Virus record (IMG/VR): IMGVR_UViG_3300020222_000019
Location: 1 to 60,635 of that record
Reading direction: 5' to 3' (one strand)
From: a virus
DNA length: 60,635 nucleotides
Part shown: positions 5,732 to 57,713 of the stretch, one piece after another
Layout of the letters: every line of letters starts with the position of its first letter
Position numbering within the stretch: the first letter of the stretch is position 1
Made by a program: the position numbers and the translations under genes
Notes under the pieces: generated by a model
The model's database searches: none
The model's input: the letters and a program-made list of their open reading frames with translations, nothing else
What the model was told of the DNA's origin: nothing

Positions 5732-5912
5732 TTTTAAATTCTTCTATAAAGTTTATAATTTCTTCTTTTGTTTTTCCAGAATTAAACATTCTATATACAT
5801 CCCTTGAAAATTCATCGGTTAGATAAACAGCGTCAGCATCTAAATAGTCCATTATATTTTCAAGGTTTAATAATATACCATCTTTCTTTAAAAATCTTTT
5901 ATTAAATCCCAT
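5715..5912 (-). CDS. Hypothetical protein
   Basis: A 65-residue protein starting at the ATG at 5912 (MGFNKRFLKKDGILLNLENI). A longer reading would need a TTG at 5948. It is acidic in the second half (FSRDVYRMFNSGKTKEEIINFIEEF), predicted helical, and of unknown family. Confidence 0.5.
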   Translation of the reverse strand: MGFNKRFLKKDGILLNLENIMDYLDADAVYLTDEFSRDVYRMFNSGKTKEEIINFIEEFKNGDIC

Positions 5913-5951
5913 AATTATAAATTTAACAAATATTTCTAATAAATTCAAATA

Positions 5952-24933: not shown

Positions 24934-25944
24934 ATGAAAATTATAATTTCTGAATCACAATATAATAAATTATATTCTTATAATAATCCAGGTGTCAATT
25001 TAATTATTAATGAAGTTGCCGGTAAAAAACTTACACCATTAAGTGAAGGTTGGTTAAATACTCTGGCCGACATTGTTGGTATTTTTGACCCAACAGGACT
25101 TGTTGATATTGGAAATGCCGTTTCATACTGGCACCAAGGAAAAAATACATTTGCCTTATTAACGTTAGTTTCTGCAATACCTGGTATTGACTGGGCAACA
25201 AAACCTTTTATTTTGGGTAGTAAAATTGTTGCTGGTGCATCTGAAACAAAAATACTTGGTTGGTTAGTAAGAACACTTAACAAATGGATTGGTAAAGTTT
25301 TAGACAAAATAGATAAGATGTTACTTTCTAAAATACCAATTGTTAAAAACTTTGCAGATGCTATGAGATCATTTATAAATGGTCTTAAAAAAGATTCAGA
25401 AATGAAATTAAACGAATCCAAACTTTATAAGATATTAACTGAAGATGTTGATTTTGATAAGGCTTATCGTGAATTTTTCCCAAAAATTTATAAATCAGTA
25501 TGTTTAAAATATGCAAAAGGTGATGGTGAAAAAGCTCAAGACTTTTGTCAAGATGGGTTTATAAAGGCTTACAATAAATTAAGTCAGTTTAGAGGTGATA
25601 ATTTAGGTGGTTGGATTGCGATGATTGTAAGAAACAATATTCTTGATGAATTAAGAAAAGAAAAAGGTTCAAAAATTCAAGATTTTGATTTTGGTAGATA
25701 TGATGCAAAACAAGAAGAATATGATGATTCATTTATGGGTAGATATAGTGAACAAGATATTCAAGATGCAATAAATACATTATCACCACAATTTCAAAAG
25801 GTTTTCAGAATGTATTATTTTGATGGAATGAAACACCACGAAATTGCAAAAAAATTAGGTATTTCCGATAGTACATCAAAAACAAACTTACTTAGAGGAA
25901 AAGTAAAAGTTAAAGATTTCTTAGAAAATTTAAAGGAGGCATAA
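24934..25944 (+). CDS. Tagged pretoxin-like/ECF sigma factor fusion
   Basis: A 336-residue protein in three parts. Residues 1-15 (MKIIISESQYNKLYS) match the tag of the metalloprotease at 22,635. Residues ~40-150 form a Gly/hydrophobic domain (FDPTGLVDIGNAVSYWHQGK, LLTLVSAIPGIDWATKPFIL) like pretoxin or membrane-active regions of phage structural proteins. At residue 157 a second tag-like segment starts with an in-frame ATG at 25,402 (MKLNESKLYKILTED). From ~172 to the end it is an ECF-type sigma factor: sigma-2 with DFCQDGFIKAYNKLSQFRGD and WIAMIVRNNILDELRKEKG, sigma-4 with LSPQFQKVFRMYYFDGMKHH and EIAKKLGISDSTSKTNLLRG. It may be a fusion of two tagged genes. A packaged, injected sigma factor is my inference. 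Confidence 0.82.
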   Translation: MKIIISESQYNKLYSYNNPGVNLIINEVAGKKLTPLSEGWLNTLADIVGIFDPTGLVDIGNAVSYWHQGKNTFALLTLVSAIPGIDWATKPFILGSKIVAGASETKILGWLVRTLNKWIGKVLDKIDKMLLSKIPIVKNFADAMRSFINGLKKDSEMKLNESKLYKILTEDVDFDKAYREFFPKIYKSVCLKYAKGDGEKAQDFCQDGFIKAYNKLSQFRGDNLGGWIAMIVRNNILDELRKEKGSKIQDFDFGRYDAKQEEYDDSFMGRYSEQDIQDAINTLSPQFQKVFRMYYFDGMKHHEIAKKLGISDSTSKTNLLRGKVKVKDFLENLKEA

Positions 25945-45359: not shown

Positions 45360-45948
45360 TGTCTAATTTTTTTATAAAATATTCAAAATCAAAAGCAGGA
45401 CTCAAGTCTGTGGATTCTTCATCAATATTTGATCTTGTGATAATCCCACTAAATGTTTCCAGTCTATTTGTTTTTGTATTATGTCCAATACAAATTGGTT
45501 CTATATTAAACTTTTTAGATAACTTAATACAAAGTTCAGCTGTTTTATCCAACTGTATTTGTGTATAAGGTTCCCAAAAAAAATAGTCTCTCCATTTCTT
45601 ACTGAACACTTTCTCTTTATAAATACTCCCCAACCAGTTAATGTGATGATTTTTTAGTGGTTGTTTTTCTAACCAACCAAGATTTTCCAAAGAAATGATA
45701 ATAGACTGTTTATCATACACAGTATTGTTTAACATTTTACCATAATGTTCATTATCCATTGTTTGTAAAACAATACCTTCTTTTGTTACAATGTAATGTG
45801 GTAATTTATCATATTTCTTGTTGTGTCTATTTCTCAATGCTGTTAAATATTCATCAGCATTTCTTGATGTGTGGGTTAAAACTATCTGAATTTTATTTTT
45901 TTCTACACCGAAATTATTGTTAATTTTTTTATCTAAAATTTCAAACAT
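45352..45948 (-). CDS. N-acetylmuramoyl-L-alanine amidase (endolysin)
   Basis: A 198-residue amidase_2-type enzyme. Features are QIVLTHTSRNADEYLTALRN (His near the first metal site), YDKLPHYIVTKEGIVLQTMD, SIIISLENLGWLEKQP, and GHNTKTNRLETFSGIITRS followed by TDLSPAFDFEYF. The usual final His-x-DPG motif reads DLSPAFDF, so the metal site should be checked. It is expected to cut peptidoglycan at lysis. The two membrane coiled-coil genes downstream may complete the lysis set. Confidence 0.75.
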   Translation of the reverse strand: MFEILDKKINNNFGVEKNKIQIVLTHTSRNADEYLTALRNRHNKKYDKLPHYIVTKEGIVLQTMDNEHYGKMLNNTVYDKQSIIISLENLGWLEKQPLKNHHINWLGSIYKEKVFSKKWRDYFFWEPYTQIQLDKTAELCIKLSKKFNIEPICIGHNTKTNRLETFSGIITRSNIDEESTDLSPAFDFEYFIKKLDNE

Positions 45949-46990
45949 TCTTTTTATATGTAAGTCTTTTTATACCACCAATATCATTTGTTGTTGTAGT
46001 TGTTTCCATAGGAACGTCTATCCAATAATCAACATTATCAAATAAATCTTCATCATCTACTTGGTCGGTACTTGGTCGGTACTTGGTCGGTACTTGGTCG
46101 GTTTCTTCTTCAACTTGGGGGGTACTTGTGGGTTGGTTGTGGATTGGTTGTGGGGTTGGTAGATTGGTTGATTGAAAATTTTCATCTTCTTTTCTACTGG
46201 ACTTGAATGCTTGATTTGTTGCAATAACCAAAGTAATTGCCAATGGATCAAAAACAAAAATCAGAATTAAAATAAAAAGATTTGCAGTTCTTTTTATTTC
46301 CCAATCTAAAAGTTCACTTACGTATTTGATTGCACCAAGTTCACTATTCCCAATGTCTTGTGATTCCATATCTAAAATCTGAACATCAAGTTTTGTTATA
46401 CTATCGTTATAACCATCGATTCTTTTTGAAATTGTATCTCTTCTTGATTGTGCTTCTTTTAATTGTCCTTCAAATGATTTTCTATTTGCATTATTTGCTC
46501 TTGTAATTAATTGCCCAGTTCTTTGGTCTACAGTTTGTGTTGTTGTATTTGTAGATAGTCCATCCCTTAATTTTGTAATATCACCATCGAGGGTTATTTT
46601 TTCTTTTGTTAATTCGGTTTTTATTTCTTCAAATCTTTTCTTTTTAACTTCAACATTCTTTACTTGTTTTTCACTTATTTCAAGTTTTGCAATATTTCCT
46701 TGGAATCCGGTACTAAGTAATCCATAGATACCCAAAGAAGTAATAATTGATAATATTATAAGTGCAATTGTCATATAAATTTTTAAGACACCATATGTTT
46801 GTTTCCATTTATCGTGAAGATATGTAGCTATTGCTATTTTAGAAATTTCAAGGAAGGATCCCATTATTATTACCGGAATTGCAACACCGACAAACACAAT
46901 GGACAAACCAACAACACTATAATATGCTGCGGTTGCTGATAAACCAAGAGCACAAAATAACATAAACCAGGGTAAAAATTTTTCTTTCAT
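45941..46990 (-). CDS. Multi-pass membrane coiled-coil protein
   Basis: A 349-residue protein. Three N-terminal membrane helices (~residues 5-25, 27-50 and 70-92) are followed by a long coiled coil (~100-220), a fourth hydrophobic segment (~238-262: LFILILIFVFDPLAITLVIA) and a Pro/Thr-rich tail. The tail holds an 11-bp tandem repeat at DNA level (TDQVPTKYRPS, then TDQV). It resembles membrane proteins in other large Bacteroidota phages. The function is unknown. Confidence 0.6.
   Translation of the reverse strand: MKEKFLPWFMLFCALGLSATAAYYSVVGLSIVFVGVAIPVIIMGSFLEISKIAIATYLHDKWKQTYGVLKIYMTIALIILSIITSLGIYGLLSTGFQGNIAKLEISEKQVKNVEVKKKRFEEIKTELTKEKITLDGDITKLRDGLSTNTTTQTVDQRTGQLITRANNANRKSFEGQLKEAQSRRDTISKRIDGYNDSITKLDVQILDMESQDIGNSELGAIKYVSELLDWEIKRTANLFILILIFVFDPLAITLVIATNQAFKSSRKEDENFQSTNLPTPQPIHNQPTSTPQVEEETDQVPTKYRPSTDQVDDEDLFDNVDYWIDVPMETTTTTNDIGGIKRLTYKKNV
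46060..46103 (+). repeat. 11-bp tandem repeat, four copies
   Basis: CTTGGTCGGTA is repeated at 46060, 46071, 46082 and 46093 (last copy ends in T). It lies in the C-terminal coding part of the gene at 45,941-46,990. Eleven is not a multiple of three, so loss or gain of one unit would shift the frame. A G/T-rich degenerate tract with many GG runs follows to about 46173. Confidence 0.9.
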
Positions 46991-47547: not shown

Positions 47548-47579
47548 CAAAGATATGTTGTTTTTTCTAATTTACCAAA
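47548..47579 (-). promoter_or_regulatory. Promoter of the ncRNA candidate
   Basis: On the minus strand TTTG (47579-47576), 20 nt, then TATCTTTG (47555-47548): a full match to the Bacteroidota consensus. No start codon follows at the usual 4 nt, unlike the protein-coding promoters here. The -33 box lies in the last codons of the methyltransferase gene. Confidence 0.75.
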
Positions 47580-48469
47580 CTTTTTTGATAAATATTTTGG
47601 AATATGTAAGAAATTACATCAACGGTCCATCCATTACCAATCATTTTTTTTCTTTGGTTTAAAGTTGCAATTGATGTGTAGTTATCTGGTAGTGTTTGTA
47701 ATCTTTCGTATTCCAGAATATTAAGTTCCCTTAAATTTCCATCAACAACAACACCATAGTTACAGGCCGTGTTTAGTGTATTTGTTTTACCGTGACTTAC
47801 TCTACCTCTTCTTGTTTTACTCTTCGGAACTTCAAGGTTTACACAATCACCATTATTAGCATACAAATATCCTTGTTTTGTTCCATTCCTTATTTTAAAA
47901 CCTTCGTCGTTTATATCTAACACAACAAGGTGGTCGTTTATTATTTTTTCTGAACCATCTGGTTTTAAAATATCTAAAATGTGAATGTTCTTATCTTCCA
48001 TATTCTTATCAATTGGAATGTTAGTCCAATAAAGTCTTTGTCTTTTTTGAGCCGAAAAAAATTTACTGTCAATCATTATTGGTTCAACACCAATTGCGTC
48101 TGTTATAATTTTTTCCCATTCTTTTTTCATTACAACATTTTCTAAAAGAAAATATGTTGGTTTTACTTCATTTAATATTCTAACATATTCCCAAAATAAA
48201 CCACTCTTTCCGTCAAATCCTGTATTGTCACCTGACCTACTAAATGATTGACATGGTGATCCACCTATAAGTAAATCAATTTTTGGTAATGTTGAGGTAT
48301 CCAAACCTACAACACTACCTAATTGGATTGTATTTGGGAAATGGTGTTGTGTAAGGGAAATTGCGTGTTTATCAATTTCTGAAGCAAAATAATTATCAAC
48401 TTCAATACCAGCTCTTTGTAGTGCTAGTTGTCCGCAGGAAATACCATCAAATAGACTCAATATATTCAT
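47567..48469 (-). CDS. DNA (cytosine-5) methyltransferase
   Basis: A 300-residue C5-cytosine methyltransferase. Motif I is LSLFDGISCGQLAL, motif IV is LLIGGSPCQSFSRSG with the catalytic Cys, motif VI is FLLENVVM, motif VIII is SAQKRQRLYW, and motif X is GNGWTVDVI. The short target-recognition region lies between ~170 and 250. It is a paralogue of the gene immediately upstream and overlaps it by 23 nt. No restriction enzyme is near, so a solitary protective or epigenetic methylase is likely. Confidence 0.93.
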   Translation of the reverse strand: MNILSLFDGISCGQLALQRAGIEVDNYFASEIDKHAISLTQHHFPNTIQLGSVVGLDTSTLPKIDLLIGGSPCQSFSRSGDNTGFDGKSGLFWEYVRILNEVKPTYFLLENVVMKKEWEKIITDAIGVEPIMIDSKFFSAQKRQRLYWTNIPIDKNMEDKNIHILDILKPDGSEKIINDHLVVLDINDEGFKIRNGTKQGYLYANNGDCVNLEVPKSKTRRGRVSHGKTNTLNTACNYGVVVDGNLRELNILEYERLQTLPDNYTSIATLNQRKKMIGNGWTVDVISYIFQNIYQKSLVN

Positions 48470-49265
48470 ATTTCATATTTTTGAATATATGTTCTATAAT
48501 ACCTACGGTCCAACCATTTCCTAACATTTTATATCTTTGAGTATTGGAAACAACTGAAGAATAATTATCTGGAACATTTTGTAATCTTTCGTATTCAACT
48601 GGTGTTAGCATTCTAATATTACCATTATCCATAACACCACTCATTTGTTGATTACCAAATCCTTTATAATCTCTAGCAAGTAATGTTGCCGATTTATCAC
48701 CACCAGGTTTATGTGTCTTTTTTTGGTTTGACACAATTATATGTTGACCACTTAAAAGTATATCAGACATTTTTACATTTTTATCTTCTGGTTGTTTTAT
48801 ATTTGAAATGTTGGTCCAGTAGAGTCGTTTTCTATTTTGTGCAGAAACAAGATTACTATTTATTAAAATTGGTTCAACACCCATATGTTGTGTAATAACA
48901 TCTTCATATTCTTTTTTCATCACAACATTTTCAAGTAAAAAGTATTTTGGTTTACATTCTTCCATTAACCTAACAAATTCAAAGAACAATTTACTTCGTT
49001 CGTCTTCGAAATTTAATTGTTTACCAGCAAATGAAAATCCCTGACACGGACTACCACCAATAAGTAAATCAATTGGTGGTAGGTCAGTTCCTTTAACTTG
49101 TGTAACATCACCAATTTGTATTGTTTCTGGATAGTTATGTTGTGTTACTTGTATTGCAAACTTATCTATTTCTGATGCAAAGTACTTATCATATTTAATA
49201 CCAGCTTTGTTTAGTGCAATTTGTCCACAGGACATTCCATCAAATGAAGAAAGTACATTCATCAT
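48447..49265 (-). CDS. DNA (cytosine-5) methyltransferase, second copy
   Basis: A 272-residue paralogue of the preceding entry. Motif I is SSFDGMSCGQIAL, motif IV is LLIGGSPCQGFSFAG, motif VI is FLLENVVM, motif VIII is SAQNRKRLYW, and motif X is LGNGWTVGIIEHI. The target-recognition part differs (GGDKSATLLARDYKGFGNQQ), so it likely methylates another site. The first ATG overlaps the sigma factor stop as ATGA. Confidence 0.93.
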   Translation of the reverse strand: MMNVLSSFDGMSCGQIALNKAGIKYDKYFASEIDKFAIQVTQHNYPETIQIGDVTQVKGTDLPPIDLLIGGSPCQGFSFAGKQLNFEDERSKLFFEFVRLMEECKPKYFLLENVVMKKEYEDVITQHMGVEPILINSNLVSAQNRKRLYWTNISNIKQPEDKNVKMSDILLSGQHIIVSNQKKTHKPGGDKSATLLARDYKGFGNQQMSGVMDNGNIRMLTPVEYERLQNVPDNYSSVVSNTQRYKMLGNGWTVGIIEHIFKNMKYEYIESI

Positions 49266-50062
49266 AGATAGTCAAATAGTTCAGATGATTCATTACGAAG
49301 TCTACGAAGAGCTTTTTCTTTGATTTGTCTAACTCTTTCTTTTGTTAAGTTAAAATCTGACCCAATGTCTTCCAAAGTTCTTGGTGTACCAGTAAGGCCA
49401 AAATAGTCACCGATGATTGATTTTTCACGGTCGTCCAAAACATTAAGTAATGACAACAACTTGTCTTTAAGAATGTCTTTTGTATTAAACCCAGCGTCTG
49501 GAGCTACAGCATCTGGATTTTCAATAAGATCAATAAGTGTATCACCTTCTTCGTTGATATTCATATCAAGATTAATTATTGAAGGAAGTCGGGCAAACTT
49601 ATCATCCAGTTTTTTACCGGATTGTTCAACTTCTTTTTTTGCTTTTTGTAAATCCTGGACAACATTAACTGGGAGTCTGATTGTTCTTGCATTGTCATTT
49701 AGGGATTGAATAATTGATTGTTTAACCCACCACACAGCATATGAAATAAATCTTAAGTCTTTATTCCAATCAAAATTTTTAATTGCTTTCATAAGACCAA
49801 GGTTTCCTTCGGCAATAAGATCCGATAAATCAAGACCTTGATTCTGATACTGTTTTGCAACAGTGATAACAAAACGAAGATTTCCTTCCAATAGTTCGTC
49901 TTCTATTTTTTTTCTTTCTCTTTCCGAAATCTCTTCAGATTTCATTTTCAAAGCAAGCTCCTTCTCACGATCTGGAGTCATAACTTTAATCTTTCTAATG
50001 TCTTTTAGGTAGTGATAAATTTCGTCCTGATTAATTGGGGCACCGATGTTCTTTTCCTTCAT
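49262..50062 (-). CDS. RpoD-like sigma-70 factor
   Basis: A 266-residue group 1/2-type sigma factor. Region 1.2 is DEIYHYLKDIRKIKVMTPDR, region 2 includes GNLRFVITVAKQYQNQGLDL, SDLIAEGNLGLMKAIKNFDW and FISYAVWWVKQSIIQSLNDN, and region 3 follows ARTIRLPVN. Region 4 is LEDIGSDFNLTKERVRQIKE. It closely resembles the short RpoD of Bacteroidota. It may redirect host RNA polymerase to phage promoters. A second, ECF-type sigma factor is encoded at 24,934. Confidence 0.93.
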   Translation of the reverse strand: MKEKNIGAPINQDEIYHYLKDIRKIKVMTPDREKELALKMKSEEISERERKKIEDELLEGNLRFVITVAKQYQNQGLDLSDLIAEGNLGLMKAIKNFDWNKDLRFISYAVWWVKQSIIQSLNDNARTIRLPVNVVQDLQKAKKEVEQSGKKLDDKFARLPSIINLDMNINEEGDTLIDLIENPDAVAPDAGFNTKDILKDKLLSLLNVLDDREKSIIGDYFGLTGTPRTLEDIGSDFNLTKERVRQIKEKALRRLRNESSELFDYL

Positions 50063-50684: not shown

Positions 50685-50982
50685 ATTGTGATTACATTTT
50701 ATTTGTTGATGGTCACAATAAACAACCTCTAAACCGAACTAACTAAATAGTTGTGATTACCTTCCATTTAAGTATGATTCACAATTTTATTAAATATGGA
50801 TAGTATATTGTCCGAGTTGTGATTACCTTTCATTTAAGGATGATTCACAATGCGCACTGCCGGTTTGTCCGAACGATTTTTGTTGTGATTACCTTTCATT
50901 TAAGGATGATTCACAATTTCAATCGTTGGGGATGAATTATACGGCAGTTGTGATTACCTTTCATTTAAGGATGATTCACAAT
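50685..50982 (-). CRISPR. CRISPR array, five repeats and four spacers
   Basis: On the plus strand 36-bp repeats begin GTTGTGATTACC and end GATTCACAAT. Copies at 50947-50982, 50882-50917 and 50816-50851 are the same. The copy at 50750-50785 has two changes and 50685-50719 is strongly degenerate (35 bp). Spacers are 29, 30, 30 and 30 bp. Degenerate repeats normally mark the trailer, so the leader faces the TnpB gene and the array should be read on the minus strand, in line with tnpB. The repeat is partly palindromic at its ends (GTTGTGA / TCACAAT) and has an inner CCTT / AAGG stem. No cas1 or cas2 is in the window. Confidence 0.92.
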
Positions 50983-51089
50983 GTGAATTAGGAAACTTTA
51001 CTATTGAAAGGTTCTTATCATCAACAGAAGTTGTAACCAACTTCCTCCGAATAATTAAATTGGATGTCACACCACCCAGTTTTTGTTTC
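50983..51089 (-). ncRNA. Leader / possible guide-scaffold RNA
   Basis: A 107-bp stretch between the tnpB stop and the first repeat. It has a perfect 7-bp hairpin GAAGTTG / CAACTTC (51027-51044). On the minus strand it also contains ACCTTTCA (51012-51005), which can pair with TGAAAGGT of the repeat in the same RNA sense. A guide scaffold is expected at this place for TnpB (omegaRNA) and for compact type V systems (tracrRNA). The RNA itself is inferred. Confidence 0.5.
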
Positions 51090-52268
51090 CTATTTTTTTA
51101 AACTGTCAAAGAACTTTTTTGTCCCTAAATCTCTAATGTTTAAGGCAGCATTTAAATCTCTATTCAAAATTTCACCACAATTTTCACATTTCCAGATTCT
51201 ATCTTTTAATTCTAAATTTTTATTAATTGTCCCACAACAATTACATTTTTTACTTGTTGGTTCAAATCTACCAATTTCAACTAAATATTTTCCACTATTT
51301 TTTGTTTTATAACCAATCATAGTTTTAAATTTACCAAAACCAACATCAATTATACTTCTATTCAATCCAGATTTTTGTTTTACATTTTTACCAGGATTTT
51401 CTTTTGTACCTTTACTTGATTTTGTCATCCCTTTAACATTTAAATCTTCCATACAAATCAAATCATAATTATCTACTAATTTTTTTGATTCGTTATGTAA
51501 AAAATTTTCTCTTGTATTAGCTACATTTTCATGTATTTTTGAAATGTTTTTTTTTATTTTTTTATAGTTGTTTGACCCTTTTTTTGCTCTTGCTAATTTT
51601 CTTTGTAAGACAGTTAGGTGTTCTTGATTTTTAGTTAAATGTTTTGGATTTTCTATTACTTCGTTATCTGATGTGACAACAAATGCTTTTACCCCCAAAT
51701 CTATACCAACACTTTTTTTAACTTCAACTTTTTTAAAATTATTTGTGTACTCAACCATAATTGAGACATAATATTTATTGTGTTTTTTTGAAATTGTTAC
51801 GGTTTTGATTTTACCTTCAATAGGTCTATGATATTTAATTTTAATTAATTTTTCAACCTTTGGTATTTTCAAATAGCCGTCATATGTAATATATAAATTT
51901 TTAGAATTTTGCTTTGTACTTGGTCTTGTTGTAAAACTTTGAGTGGTGTCGGATTCTTTTTTGAATTTTGGGTAACCCCCTTTATTTTTAAAAAAATTTT
52001 TATATGCCTTTGATAAGGCCTTCATTTCATTACAATATATGTTTACATCATATTCGTTTAGAAATGGTGCTTTTACTCTATAATTTTTTATATGATAATT
52101 TAATCCAAAATGTGATAAATTTGATTTACCACCCAACTGATAAATTTGTTTTTCACAATCTAAAGAAACATTATAAACATATCTTCCGGCTTTGAAAGCC
52201 CCTTCAAAATATTCTATTTGTTTCTCTGTTGGGTAAATCCTATATTTATATGCTTTATTTTGTTTCAC
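51090..52268 (-). CDS. tnpB: TnpB-like RuvC nuclease, candidate CRISPR effector
   Basis: A 392-residue IS200/IS605-family TnpB. The N-terminal HTH part (NKAYKYRIYPTEKQIEYFEG) is followed by the RuvC-like nuclease with D190 (SVGIDLGVKAF), E274 (LICMEDLNVKGM) and D371 (NRDLNAALNI), so the catalytic triad is complete. A zinc ribbon has Cys342, Cys345, Cys361 and Cys364. The GTG at 52268 was chosen because a perfect promoter ends 4 nt before it and no ATG is near. No tnpA or transposon end was seen. The CRISPR array 107 bp downstream in the same orientation suggests a type V-U-like system; an old IS copy near an unrelated array is the alternative. Confidence 0.92.
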   Translation of the reverse strand: MKQNKAYKYRIYPTEKQIEYFEGAFKAGRYVYNVSLDCEKQIYQLGGKSNLSHFGLNYHIKNYRVKAPFLNEYDVNIYCNEMKALSKAYKNFFKNKGGYPKFKKESDTTQSFTTRPSTKQNSKNLYITYDGYLKIPKVEKLIKIKYHRPIEGKIKTVTISKKHNKYYVSIMVEYTNNFKKVEVKKSVGIDLGVKAFVVTSDNEVIENPKHLTKNQEHLTVLQRKLARAKKGSNNYKKIKKNISKIHENVANTRENFLHNESKKLVDNYDLICMEDLNVKGMTKSSKGTKENPGKNVKQKSGLNRSIIDVGFGKFKTMIGYKTKNSGKYLVEIGRFEPTSKKCNCCGTINKNLELKDRIWKCENCGEILNRDLNAALNIRDLGTKKFFDSLKK

Positions 52269-52272
52269 AATA

Positions 52273-52304
52273 CAAATATAGGATTTATTTTTTAATTGGT
52301 CAAA
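52273..52304 (-). promoter_or_regulatory. Promoter of tnpB
   Basis: On the minus strand TTTG (52304-52301), 20 nt, then TATATTTG (52280-52273), ending 4 nt before the GTG start. It is a full consensus match and predicts a leaderless mRNA that could continue into the array. Confidence 0.8.
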
Positions 52305-56028: not shown

Positions 56029-56779
56029 TTTCAATATCGTCAAATGAATTTATTGAGAATTTTAGAAATGGTCTTGGGTTTTCAAGATCGGTATATGTAT
56101 ATTCCTTGGTTTCGAAATCATAAATTCCGAACCCGTGGTTTCTAATACTTTCACCTATGTTCTGTTGAATTGGTGATCCAATCATATATCCTTTACCTGT
56201 TTTGAATTTAAATTCCTGTCTTTTATGAATATCACCACATAATACAATATCAAGTCCGTTGAACTTTTCAACATCATATGCTTCTTCACCAAAGTCAAAC
56301 CCTAAATCCGTTTTCATGCCTTGGATTGGTCCGTGAAATAAACCAACTTTAATACCTGTTGCAACATTCAAATCTGGTGGAATATTACCCTGGTATTGTG
56401 AATAAACACACCAACTAACATTTTCATCTTCATAAACACCTCTATCTCTATAATAGACAATATTTTTGTTATTTAATGAATTAATTATTGGTGTTAAGGT
56501 ATCCAGCCTATCTAAATTATTTATGAGTGCGTCGTGGTTCCCTGGGATGATAATTGTTTTTGTGATTTTGGAACATTCGGTCAATACCCAACTTACAATT
56601 TCTATTAATTCAGGACTAACAGTGTTTTTTGAATGAACGAGGTCTCCAGTAAATACAATTCTATCTGGTTCAATCTCTCTCCATTGATTGAGTGCATCTT
56701 CCATAATTGACCTATAAAGGTCGTGGTCTTTAAATAATCTGATATGAAGATCAGAGAAATGACAAATGGTTTTGATCAT
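56000..56779 (-). CDS. Mre11/SbcD-like nuclease (gp47-like)
   Basis: A 259-residue metallophosphoesterase of the Mre11/SbcD family. Motifs are ICHFSDLHIRLF, RIVFTGDLVHSKNT, IIIPGNHDALINN, VGLFHGPIQGMKT and IVLCGDIHKRQEF. The C-terminal cap is short. It pairs with the Rad50-like ATPase at 52,292. A homing endonuclease gene was inserted just upstream of it on the other strand. Confidence 0.93.
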   Translation of the reverse strand: MIKTICHFSDLHIRLFKDHDLYRSIMEDALNQWREIEPDRIVFTGDLVHSKNTVSPELIEIVSWVLTECSKITKTIIIPGNHDALINNLDRLDTLTPIINSLNNKNIVYYRDRGVYEDENVSWCVYSQYQGNIPPDLNVATGIKVGLFHGPIQGMKTDLGFDFGEEAYDVEKFNGLDIVLCGDIHKRQEFKFKTGKGYMIGSPIQQNIGESIRNHGFGIYDFETKEYTYTDLENPRPFLKFSINSFDDIENGTELLKNL

Positions 56780-56837
56780 ATTGTTTGTTTTTTTAAAAAA
56801 TATACAAAATATTTTAATTTTTCAATACTTAAAAGAT

Positions 56838-57713
56838 ATGTATATATATAAATGTATTAATATTTTTATTATAAAAAAAAATACTTGGACTAATGAAGAA
56901 ATTGAATTTTTAAAGGTAAATTACCCAATAAAAGGTGTTGATTTTTGTGTTGATAATTTAAATTACACAAAATCTAAAATATTTGCAATGACTCACAAAC
57001 TAAAACTTAAAATGTTACCTAACATTAAGAAAAAATATACGGGTAAACCAAACAATCTATGCAATGTAAATCCTTCAAAATTTGAAAATATTGTTGATAA
57101 AGATGTTTCTTATTTCCTTGGTTTGTTATGGGCTGATGGTCATATAATACATTACAAAAGAAATTACCATATTGTTTTAACTATGTTAGAAGATGATATT
57201 ATGAATATTAAATGGATTTTAGATAAAGTTGGTAAATGGAACTATAATAAAATTAAAAAAGGGTCAGAAAACTGGAAAAATCAGATTCGGATTACAACAA
57301 ACAATAAGAGAATATACGATATATTATATAAATATGATTTTACTAAAAAATCAAAGTTTTCACCAGAAAAGTTGTTAAATTCTATACCTAATGAACTACA
57401 TAGTTACTTTTATTTGGGACTCATAGATGGTGATGGTTGTTTTTACATCGGTAGAACAAAAAAATCAACAGTAAGACAATTTTCAATTTCATCAACCTAC
57501 GAACAAGATTGGTCTTATCTTGAAAAATTGTTTAATTCAATGGATATCAAATTTTCTATTAATAGGTATAATAGGAAATCTGGTAGTTCTTATTCTTTTA
57601 TTAGAGTTTCAAATAAAAAAGACATTACAAAAATTGGTGAATATATCTATAAAGATATTGATAGATTTGGTTTAGATAGAAAGTTTTTTAAGTACAACCA
57701 AATAATTTCATAA
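56838..57713 (+). CDS. LAGLIDADG homing endonuclease
   Basis: A 291-residue protein from the ATG at 56838. A Myb/SANT-like DNA-binding part (TWTNEEIEFLKVNYPIKGVD) comes first. Two LAGLIDADG helices follow: VSYFLGLLWADGHIIHYKRN and YFYLGLIDGDGCFYIGRTKK, so it is a monomeric double-motif enzyme. It is free-standing, on the strand opposite to all its neighbours, and ends 3 nt before the next minus-strand stop. No intron was seen. Such genes copy themselves into intergenic sites of related phages. Confidence 0.9.
   Translation: MYIYKCINIFIIKKNTWTNEEIEFLKVNYPIKGVDFCVDNLNYTKSKIFAMTHKLKLKMLPNIKKKYTGKPNNLCNVNPSKFENIVDKDVSYFLGLLWADGHIIHYKRNYHIVLTMLEDDIMNIKWILDKVGKWNYNKIKKGSENWKNQIRITTNNKRIYDILYKYDFTKKSKFSPEKLLNSIPNELHSYFYLGLIDGDGCFYIGRTKKSTVRQFSISSTYEQDWSYLEKLFNSMDIKFSINRYNRKSGSSYSFIRVSNKKDITKIGEYIYKDIDRFGLDRKFFKYNQIIS

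What the first reader, a model, noticed from the sequence alone, without database searches (positions are those of the whole stretch)
50983..51089. Possible guide scaffold or tracrRNA between tnpB and the array
Seen: a perfect hairpin (51027-51044) and, on the array's sense strand, ACCTTTCA, which is complementary to eight bases of the repeat. Known: type V-F tracrRNA lies between cas12f and the array and pairs with the repeat; TnpB omegaRNA lies at the 3' end of tnpB. Inferred: this 107-nt stretch could be either. An 8-base match alone may be chance.
Basis: partly seen in the sequence, partly recalled or inferred. Interest (0 to 1): 0.75.

Follow-up and report, generated by a model that had tools for sequence, protein, structure and literature searches.

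The report
Guide-RNA scaffold of a phage mini-CRISPR
The short stretch between a tnpB-like gene and a small CRISPR array in this phage is very probably the RNA scaffold that lets the encoded tiny nuclease use the array's guides, because two related phages carry the same gene-scaffold-array cassette with entirely different spacers; this catches a transposon nuclease that has become a CRISPR enzyme inside phages.

Summary
Comparison settles most of the question. Two distinct phages in IMG/VR (L008, L069) carry the same cassette on one strand: promoter, tnpB-like effector (54-55% identical, RuvC triad intact), this gap, 36-nt repeats, and about 30-nt spacers that all differ. The gap starts at the effector's stop codon. 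It keeps a closing stem and an identical hairpin; a second hairpin diverges to 27% identity yet folds in each phage. The anti-repeat (ACCTTTCA or GCCTTTCA) is conserved amid variable sequence and pairs 8/8 with every non-terminal repeat but one; its three substitutions keep pairing as G-U. No Cas1, Cas2 or TnpA was found; ordinary TnpB loci lack array and scaffold. I read it as an omegaRNA-derived, tracrRNA-like scaffold from the effector mRNA, in a phage V-U-type system nearest Cas12n by a sparse tree. Open: only one double-sided covarying pair, no spacer target, no transcript data, and a leader-repeat hairpin blocking the first repeat is not excluded. TnpB capture of arrays and phage V-U systems are known: a new variant of a known kind.

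The parts
52273..52303 (-). Putative Bacteroidota-type promoter TTG-N20-TAnnTTTG just upstream of the effector start
   Evidence: Same motif and spacing in window, L008 and L069; the pattern with 17-23 spacing occurs 15 times on the 60.6-kb minus strand, so it is suggestive only.
51090..52268 (-). TnpB/Cas12-like RNA-guided nuclease, 392 aa, GTG start; RuvC D190, E274, D371 and zinc-ribbon cysteines present
   Evidence: Pfam OrfB_IS605, Cas12f1-like_TNB, HTH_OrfB; NCBIfam guided_TnpB; invariant residues in 22 relatives; AlphaFold model pLDDT 84, best PDB folds TnpB 8h1j and 8iaz, then Fanzor2 and Cas12f.
50983..51093 (-). Guide-RNA scaffold (tracrRNA/omegaRNA-like), from the effector stop codon to the first repeat
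   Evidence: Conserved in three phages; fold z -3.19, -2.47, -1.91 with the same topology.
51085..51092 (-). Closing stem P1, 5' strand TAGGAAAC (includes the stop codon)
   Evidence: Pairs with 50989-50996; GGAAAC/GTTTCC invariant in three phages.
51061..51078 (-). Hairpin P2, TGGGTG-GTGTGA-CATCCA
   Evidence: Identical in three phages.
51015..51054 (-).
   Evidence: 9/33 identity window vs L008, but folds in each: z -3.82, -2.65, -2.84; one pair A-U in window, G-C in the others.
51005..51012 (-). Anti-repeat ACCTTTCA
   Evidence: Pairs 8/8 (Watson-Crick or G-U) with positions 20-27 of every non-terminal repeat but one in three phages; block identity 11/13 against 9/33 and 4/10 for its neighbours.
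50989..50996 (-). Closing stem P1, 3' strand GTTTCCTA
50947..50982 (-). Repeat 1 (next to the scaffold)
50918..50946 (-). Spacer 1 (29 nt)
50882..50917 (-). Repeat 2
50852..50881 (-). Spacer 2 (30 nt)
50816..50851 (-). Repeat 3
50786..50815 (-). Spacer 3 (30 nt)
50750..50785 (-). Repeat 4 (two substitutions; the one in the anti-repeat helix keeps pairing as G-U)
50720..50749 (-). Spacer 4 (30 nt)
   Evidence: sequence
50685..50719 (-). Degenerate terminal repeat (35 nt); anti-repeat pairing lost

Best explanation
The 111-nt stretch from the tnpB stop codon to the first repeat is the guide-RNA scaffold of a minimal, phage-encoded type V (V-U-like) CRISPR system. Inferred mechanism: one transcript runs from the effector's promoter through gene, scaffold and array. 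The scaffold folds into a closing stem P1, hairpins P2 and P3 and a single-stranded anti-repeat. The anti-repeat pairs with the 3' part of each repeat (UGAAAGGU). Because P1 encloses the anti-repeat and the repeat lies outside, this helix would form a pseudoknot in cis for spacer 1 and a dual guide (tracrRNA:crRNA) in trans for the other spacers. The TnpB-derived nuclease binds this RNA and cuts, or represses, DNA matching the 30-nt spacers, probably of competing mobile elements or of the host. The element is in effect an omegaRNA split by a CRISPR array into tracrRNA and crRNA. Shown here: conservation of the cassette, fold prediction and pairing, intact catalytic residues, different spacers in each phage. 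Inferred: transcription, processing, RNA binding, targets and activity.
For: Same cassette in three distinct phages with different spacers. Effector 54-55% identical by BLAST between window and the others, against about 37-39% at best for other full-length database hits; catalytic residues invariant in 22 relatives. Scaffold: conserved block 41/43, variable hairpin 9/33 yet folding in each phage, anti-repeat block 11/13; fold z-scores. Anti-repeat pairs 8/8 with every non-terminal repeat except L069's sixth (7 of 8), with three pairing-preserving substitutions; duplex -10.6 to -11.8 kcal/mol, reached by 49 of 3968 random 16-mers. Terminator hairpin plus T-run on the same strand after the array in L069 and, by eye, in L008, and degenerate terminal repeats, fix the sense strand. 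No array beside any of the ordinary TnpB loci examined and no scaffold match beside those searched with the RNA model. A degenerate repeat scan of IMG/VR finds only these phages.
Against: Anti-repeat alone is near chance. Only one double-sided compensatory pair; the covariation score is not above shuffles (163/500). Only three phages. No spacer target. No transcript data. PADLOC Cas12f and Cas12u4 models score ordinary TnpBs about as well, so the protein alone does not prove a Cas role.
Confidence: 0.78

Rival explanations
1. The anti-repeat is a leader-repeat hairpin: it pairs in cis with the first repeat only, to stop a spacer-less 'extraneous' crRNA, as in type VI-B systems, and is not a tracrRNA.
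For: Leader-repeat hairpins that block processing of the first repeat are described for Cas13 systems (PMC13187072). In the window's MFE fold of gap plus repeat the anti-repeat does pair with repeat 1.
Against: In the L008 fold the closing stem P1 wins and the anti-repeat stays open. The rest of the stretch (P1, P2, linker; 41/43 identity) is far more conserved than a leader would need and starts exactly at the stop codon. TnpB-type effectors need a structured scaffold RNA and no other candidate is present.
Confidence: 0.12
2. The array is a mini-array that serves a host effector (type II-C Cas9 or type VI-B Cas13b of a Bacteroidota host), and the tnpB neighbour is incidental.
For: The plus strand of the repeat matches the 5' 25 nt of Rfam CRISPR-DR49 at 19-21 of 25 positions; in 3.4 million positions no DNA other than these repeats exceeds 19 (Rfam bits 18.6, below the curated 41). 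36-nt repeats and 30-nt spacers are also a type VI-B format. Hijacking mini-arrays are known (PMC11656645).
Against: Gene, scaffold and array stay together in three phages, at non-collinear places in the window and in L069's phage. Known mini-arrays carry one or two spacers with repeats identical to the host's. The anti-repeat fits this repeat in this orientation.
Confidence: 0.08
3. It is an ordinary IS200/IS605 TnpB whose omegaRNA happens to lie beside an unrelated array.
For: The domain order and best structural matches are TnpB.
Against: No TnpA in the phage records. The array and the anti-repeat are conserved in three phages. Ordinary TnpB loci show neither.
Confidence: 0.04

Closest known systems
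Type V-N (V-U4) Cas12n, e.g. RdCas12n (PDB 9j09)
   Same: Compact TnpB-like effector; tracrRNA inside the cas12n mRNA (PMC11641405); shared ENPGKNVxQKSxLNR insert; grouped with the phage clade at 97/94 support.
   Different: RdCas12n chain is 540 aa against 392-415 here; only its C-terminal half entered the tree; very few Cas12n or actinobacterial TnpB sequences were available; the AlphaFold model resembles TnpB more than 9j09.
Type V-F Cas12f (Cas14)
   Same: tracrRNA between effector and array and pairing with the repeat (established knowledge of the family); small RuvC effector; fold match.
   Different: Weak sequence similarity to AsCas12f (E about 1e-10) compared with TnpB and Cas12n; no evidence on dimerisation; ordinary TnpBs score the same on PADLOC Cas12f models.
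IS200/IS605 TnpB with omegaRNA
   Same: Domain architecture, fold, RNA at the 3' end of the gene beginning at or near the stop codon.
   Different: Guide is supplied by a CRISPR array rather than by DNA past the transposon end; no TnpA.
Cyanophage vB_AphaS-CL131 V-U2 system (PMC6293099) and V-U systems of huge and landfill phages (PMC7162821, PMC12607003)
   Same: Phage-borne TnpB-like protein beside a CRISPR array, no adaptation genes.
   Different: No tracrRNA was found in CL131; here a conserved scaffold with anti-repeat is identified.
The roughly 50 independent TnpB-to-Cas12 captures (PMC12669027)
   Same: TnpB associated with a CRISPR array.
   Different: This clade could not be matched to one of them with the data at hand.

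Membership tests
Type V-N (Cas12n / V-U4) | Effector groups with Cas12n in a tree of TnpB/Cas12 | tested here: inconclusive
   Window, L008, L069 with RdCas12n 97/94, but one partial Cas12n row and a Bacillota-biased TnpB sample; adding L020 to the group is disfavoured (p-AU 0.035).
Type V-N (Cas12n / V-U4) | Best profile is Cas12u4 | tested here: inconclusive
   Cas12u4 ranks first by 1-4 bits for the phage effectors, but also for L021, near which no array was found.
Type V-N (Cas12n / V-U4) | tracrRNA encoded inside or at the end of the effector mRNA | tested here: inconclusive
   Layout fits (scaffold starts at the stop codon; conserved promoter upstream of the gene); transcription not shown.
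Type V-N (Cas12n / V-U4) | 5'-AAN PAM | not testable with these tools
   No protospacer found.
Type V-F (Cas12f) | Effector closer to Cas12f than to TnpB | tested here: not met
   PDB: TnpB 1e-55 to 1e-47 and RdCas12n 1e-52 against AsCas12f 1e-10; structure: TnpB first.
Type V-F (Cas12f) | tracrRNA with anti-repeat between effector and array | tested here: met
   Conserved scaffold and pairing by sequence; expression not shown. It works like V-F in this respect without being placed in it.
Type V CRISPR (V-U, general) | RuvC effector with intact triad next to a CRISPR array with diverse spacers | tested here: met
Type V CRISPR (V-U, general) | RNA-guided interference | not testable with these tools
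   Needs experiment.
IS200/IS605 element | TnpA transposase of the Y1 family | tested here: not met
   No PF01797 match in six phage records; control genomes ring. TnpB-only elements exist, and the records may be incomplete.
Complete adaptive CRISPR-Cas locus | Cas1 and Cas2 | tested here: not met
   None in six records; records may be incomplete.
Host-serving phage mini-array | Repeats identical to a host array | tested here: inconclusive
   Partial resemblance to CRISPR-DR49 only; no Bacteroidota genomes could be scanned for the repeat.

The most novel reading that the evidence does not exclude
A phage lineage has turned TnpB plus omegaRNA into a self-contained tracrRNA-using CRISPR effector whose repeats imitate one end of host CRISPR repeats (CRISPR-DR49-like), so that the host's own Cas1-Cas2 load new 30-nt spacers into the phage array in trans, and the same RNA might also interfere with the host's Cas9 guides. 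Pointers: three arrays share no spacer, spacer length is fixed at about 30 nt, and repeat ends match that consensus at 19-21 of 25 positions.
Probability: 0.12. Interest if true: 0.85.

Novelty: new variant of a known kind. Interest (0 to 1): 0.6.

Why it matters
It gives a comparative, testable example of how an omegaRNA becomes a tracrRNA plus crRNA when a TnpB gains a CRISPR array, in a group (phage V-U systems) where a guide scaffold was not found in the described cyanophage case. The effectors are only 392-415 aa, so a validated scaffold would also make them candidates for compact tools, and the changing spacers without Cas1-Cas2 raise the question of who writes phage arrays.

Tried and rejected
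Rfam scan for a known RNA: none at gathering thresholds. Spacer targets: 15 spacers against 50,697 phage records gave best E 0.7 in Enterococcus phages, judged chance; against the own and related phage records matches were no better than, or within one or two bases of, shuffled spacers. A shared TCGGACAA motif in three spacers was noted, not explained. PADLOC and NCBIfam profiles to decide TnpB vs Cas12: not discriminating, since ordinary TnpBs score alike. First AlphaFold run with 3 sequences failed (pLDDT 35); repeated with 22. Cellular relatives: best about 37% in GTDB contigs, no arrays, but only contigs matching two short peptide patterns were examined. SbcC neighbour not found in the other phage records, so no empty-site comparison there. 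Papers carrying the repeat sequence: none relevant. My recollection that the repeat resembles the Bergeyella Cas13b repeat could not be verified and is not used as evidence.

Full report
WHAT IS THERE. The window is an IMG/VR phage record of 60,635 bp. On the minus strand lie, in order, a 392-aa tnpB-like gene (52268-51090), the gap in question, and a CRISPR-like array (50982-50685): four 36-nt repeats, four spacers of 29-30 nt and a degenerate 35-nt terminal repeat. The hairpin and the ACCTTTCA/TGAAAGGT complement are as described. Taken alone the complement is not significant: 458 of 5000 shuffles and 81 of 1131 windows do as well.

RELATIVES. Two IMG/VR contigs (L001, L002) are the same phage with the same spacers. 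A scan with the repeat's 3' end found a different phage, L008 (70.6-kb record), and a scan with the hairpin GGGTGGTGTGACATCC found a third, L069 (187-kb record). Both carry, in the same order and strand, a 415-aa homologue (54-55% identical to the window's by BLAST, 78% to each other), a gap of about the same length and an array of 5-6 repeats, with no spacer shared. A degenerate repeat scan found only these phages. The window and L069's phage share 41 ORFs, and L008's and L069's phage share 44, so this is one broad lineage; but most of the window's homologues lie at about 147-187 kb of L069's record, whereas the cassette there is at about 118 kb, so the cassette appears to have moved. It behaves as a unit from the promoter (TTG-N20-TAnnTTTG in all three) to the array end; L069 has a terminator hairpin with T-run on the same strand after the array, and L008 shows one by eye.

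THE EFFECTOR. Pfam: HTH_OrfB_IS605, OrfB_IS605, Cas12f1-like_TNB. D190, E274, D371 and zinc-ribbon cysteines are invariant in 22 aligned relatives. An AlphaFold model from those sequences (pLDDT 84) matches TnpB structures best, then Fanzor2 and Cas12f. By sequence the best natural PDB hit is 9j09, described as RdCas12n (PMC12776560), at 1e-52, then ISDra2 TnpB at 5e-47; 9j09 shares a KGTxENPGKNVxQKSGLNR insert. A tree groups the three phage proteins with RdCas12n (97/94); sampling is thin and only the C-terminal half of RdCas12n was used. Profiles do not separate Cas12 from TnpB here. No Cas1, Cas2 or TnpA was found in the phage records, which may be incomplete.

THE SCAFFOLD. Counting from the stop codon (51093), the RNA folds with z = -3.19 in the window, -2.47 in L008 and -1.91 in L069, with the same topology: closing stem P1 (GGAAAC/GUUUCC; its 5' strand includes the stop codon in the window), hairpin P2 (UGGGUG/CAUCCA, identical in all), hairpin P3, then a single-stranded anti-repeat. 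The conservation pattern is that of a functional RNA: 41/43 identity over P1-5'/P2/linker, 9/33 in P3 although P3 folds in every phage (z -3.82, -2.65, -2.84), 11/13 in the anti-repeat block, 4/10 just after it, and 6/6 in P1-3' (window vs L008). Formal covariation is weak with three sequences: one double-sided change (A-U against G-C at the base of P3), and the shuffle control is not exceeded. A covariance model built from the three scores them at 111-137 bits (by construction) and finds nothing above 15.8 bits elsewhere in the loci searched, which include some two dozen ordinary TnpB loci.

THE ANTI-REPEAT. It pairs 8/8 with positions 20-27 of every non-terminal repeat in the three phages, except L069's sixth (7 of 8). 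Three substitutions lie in the helix: A to G in repeat 4 of the window, A to G in the anti-repeat of L008/L069, A to G in the repeats of L069. All keep pairing as G-U. The window's degenerate terminal repeat loses it. This is conservation with wobble, not compensation on both sides.

MECHANISM. Shown: order, strand, conservation, fold prediction, pairing, intact catalytic residues, different spacers. Inferred: a single transcript is processed, the scaffold binds the effector, and the anti-repeat joins it to crRNAs as a dual guide; since P1 encloses the anti-repeat and the repeat lies outside P1, pairing in cis would be a pseudoknot. TnpB is reported to process its own mRNA into omegaRNA (a reference title in PMC12607003), and the Cas12n tracrRNA lies in the effector mRNA (PMC11641405), so the proposed biogenesis has precedent. 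Targets are unknown.

RIVALS. A leader-repeat hairpin (PMC13187072) could explain the anti-repeat but not the conserved P1/P2 block. A mini-array for host Cas9 or Cas13b is suggested by a resemblance of the repeat's plus strand to CRISPR-DR49 (21 of 25 in L008; nothing but these repeats exceeds 19 in 3.4 million positions; Rfam score below cut-off), but this does not explain the conserved gene-scaffold-array unit. The resemblance may instead reflect spacer acquisition by host Cas1-Cas2, as shown in trans for the F. columnare VI-B locus (PMC8092290). That DR49 belongs to Bacteroidota type II-C systems is my own recollection and was not tested.

NOVELTY. About 50 captures of CRISPR arrays by TnpB are inferred (PMC12669027), and phage V-U systems are known (PMC6293099; PMC7162821; PMC12607003). 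What is added is a phage clade with a comparatively defined scaffold and anti-repeat. New variant of a known kind.

Noticed in passing
L020:400-2419 (IMGVR_UViG_2778261097_000005): An unrelated phage has a 447-aa ENPGKNVKQK effector followed by about seven repeats at 61-nt spacing (GACTTACCCACGTGCGCGGGGGAGTTTGG); the first unit after the gene looks like a diverged repeat fused to a scaffold with ACGTGGG opposite CCCACGT in the repeat (the motif is partly self-complementary, so caution). Another phage V-U system of the same layout.
   Followed up: partly
window 50685-50982, plus strand: The repeat's first 25 nt match the consensus of Rfam CRISPR-DR49 at 19-21 positions in the three phages, although Rfam scores stay below cut-off.
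   Followed up: partly
window spacers 2 and 3 (50852-50881, 50786-50815) and L008 spacer 3: Three spacers of two phages share TCGGACAA; this octamer occurs only 2-4 times in each whole phage record. Unexplained, possibly chance or a common target motif.
   Followed up: partly
window 47567-50062: Two adjacent C5 cytosine methyltransferase-like genes (Pfam tested for the first only) beside a sigma-70 factor; a second sigma-like protein with a long N-terminal part lies at 24934-25944.
   Followed up: no
window 46058-46102 and 46126-46160: 11-bp tandem repeats (TACTTGGTCGG, 4.1 copies; TTGTGGGTTGG, 3.1 copies) inside the 349-aa ORF 45941-46990.
   Followed up: no
window 56766-57713 (+): LAGLIDADG homing endonuclease on the strand opposite to its neighbours.
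   Followed up: no
L022:3690-3800 and 5778-5937: Tandem copies of a 50-60-nt unit (AAATGATATTCCCAGTGAA...) near an array-less ENPGKN TnpB-like gene in another phage; not CRISPR-like.
   Followed up: no
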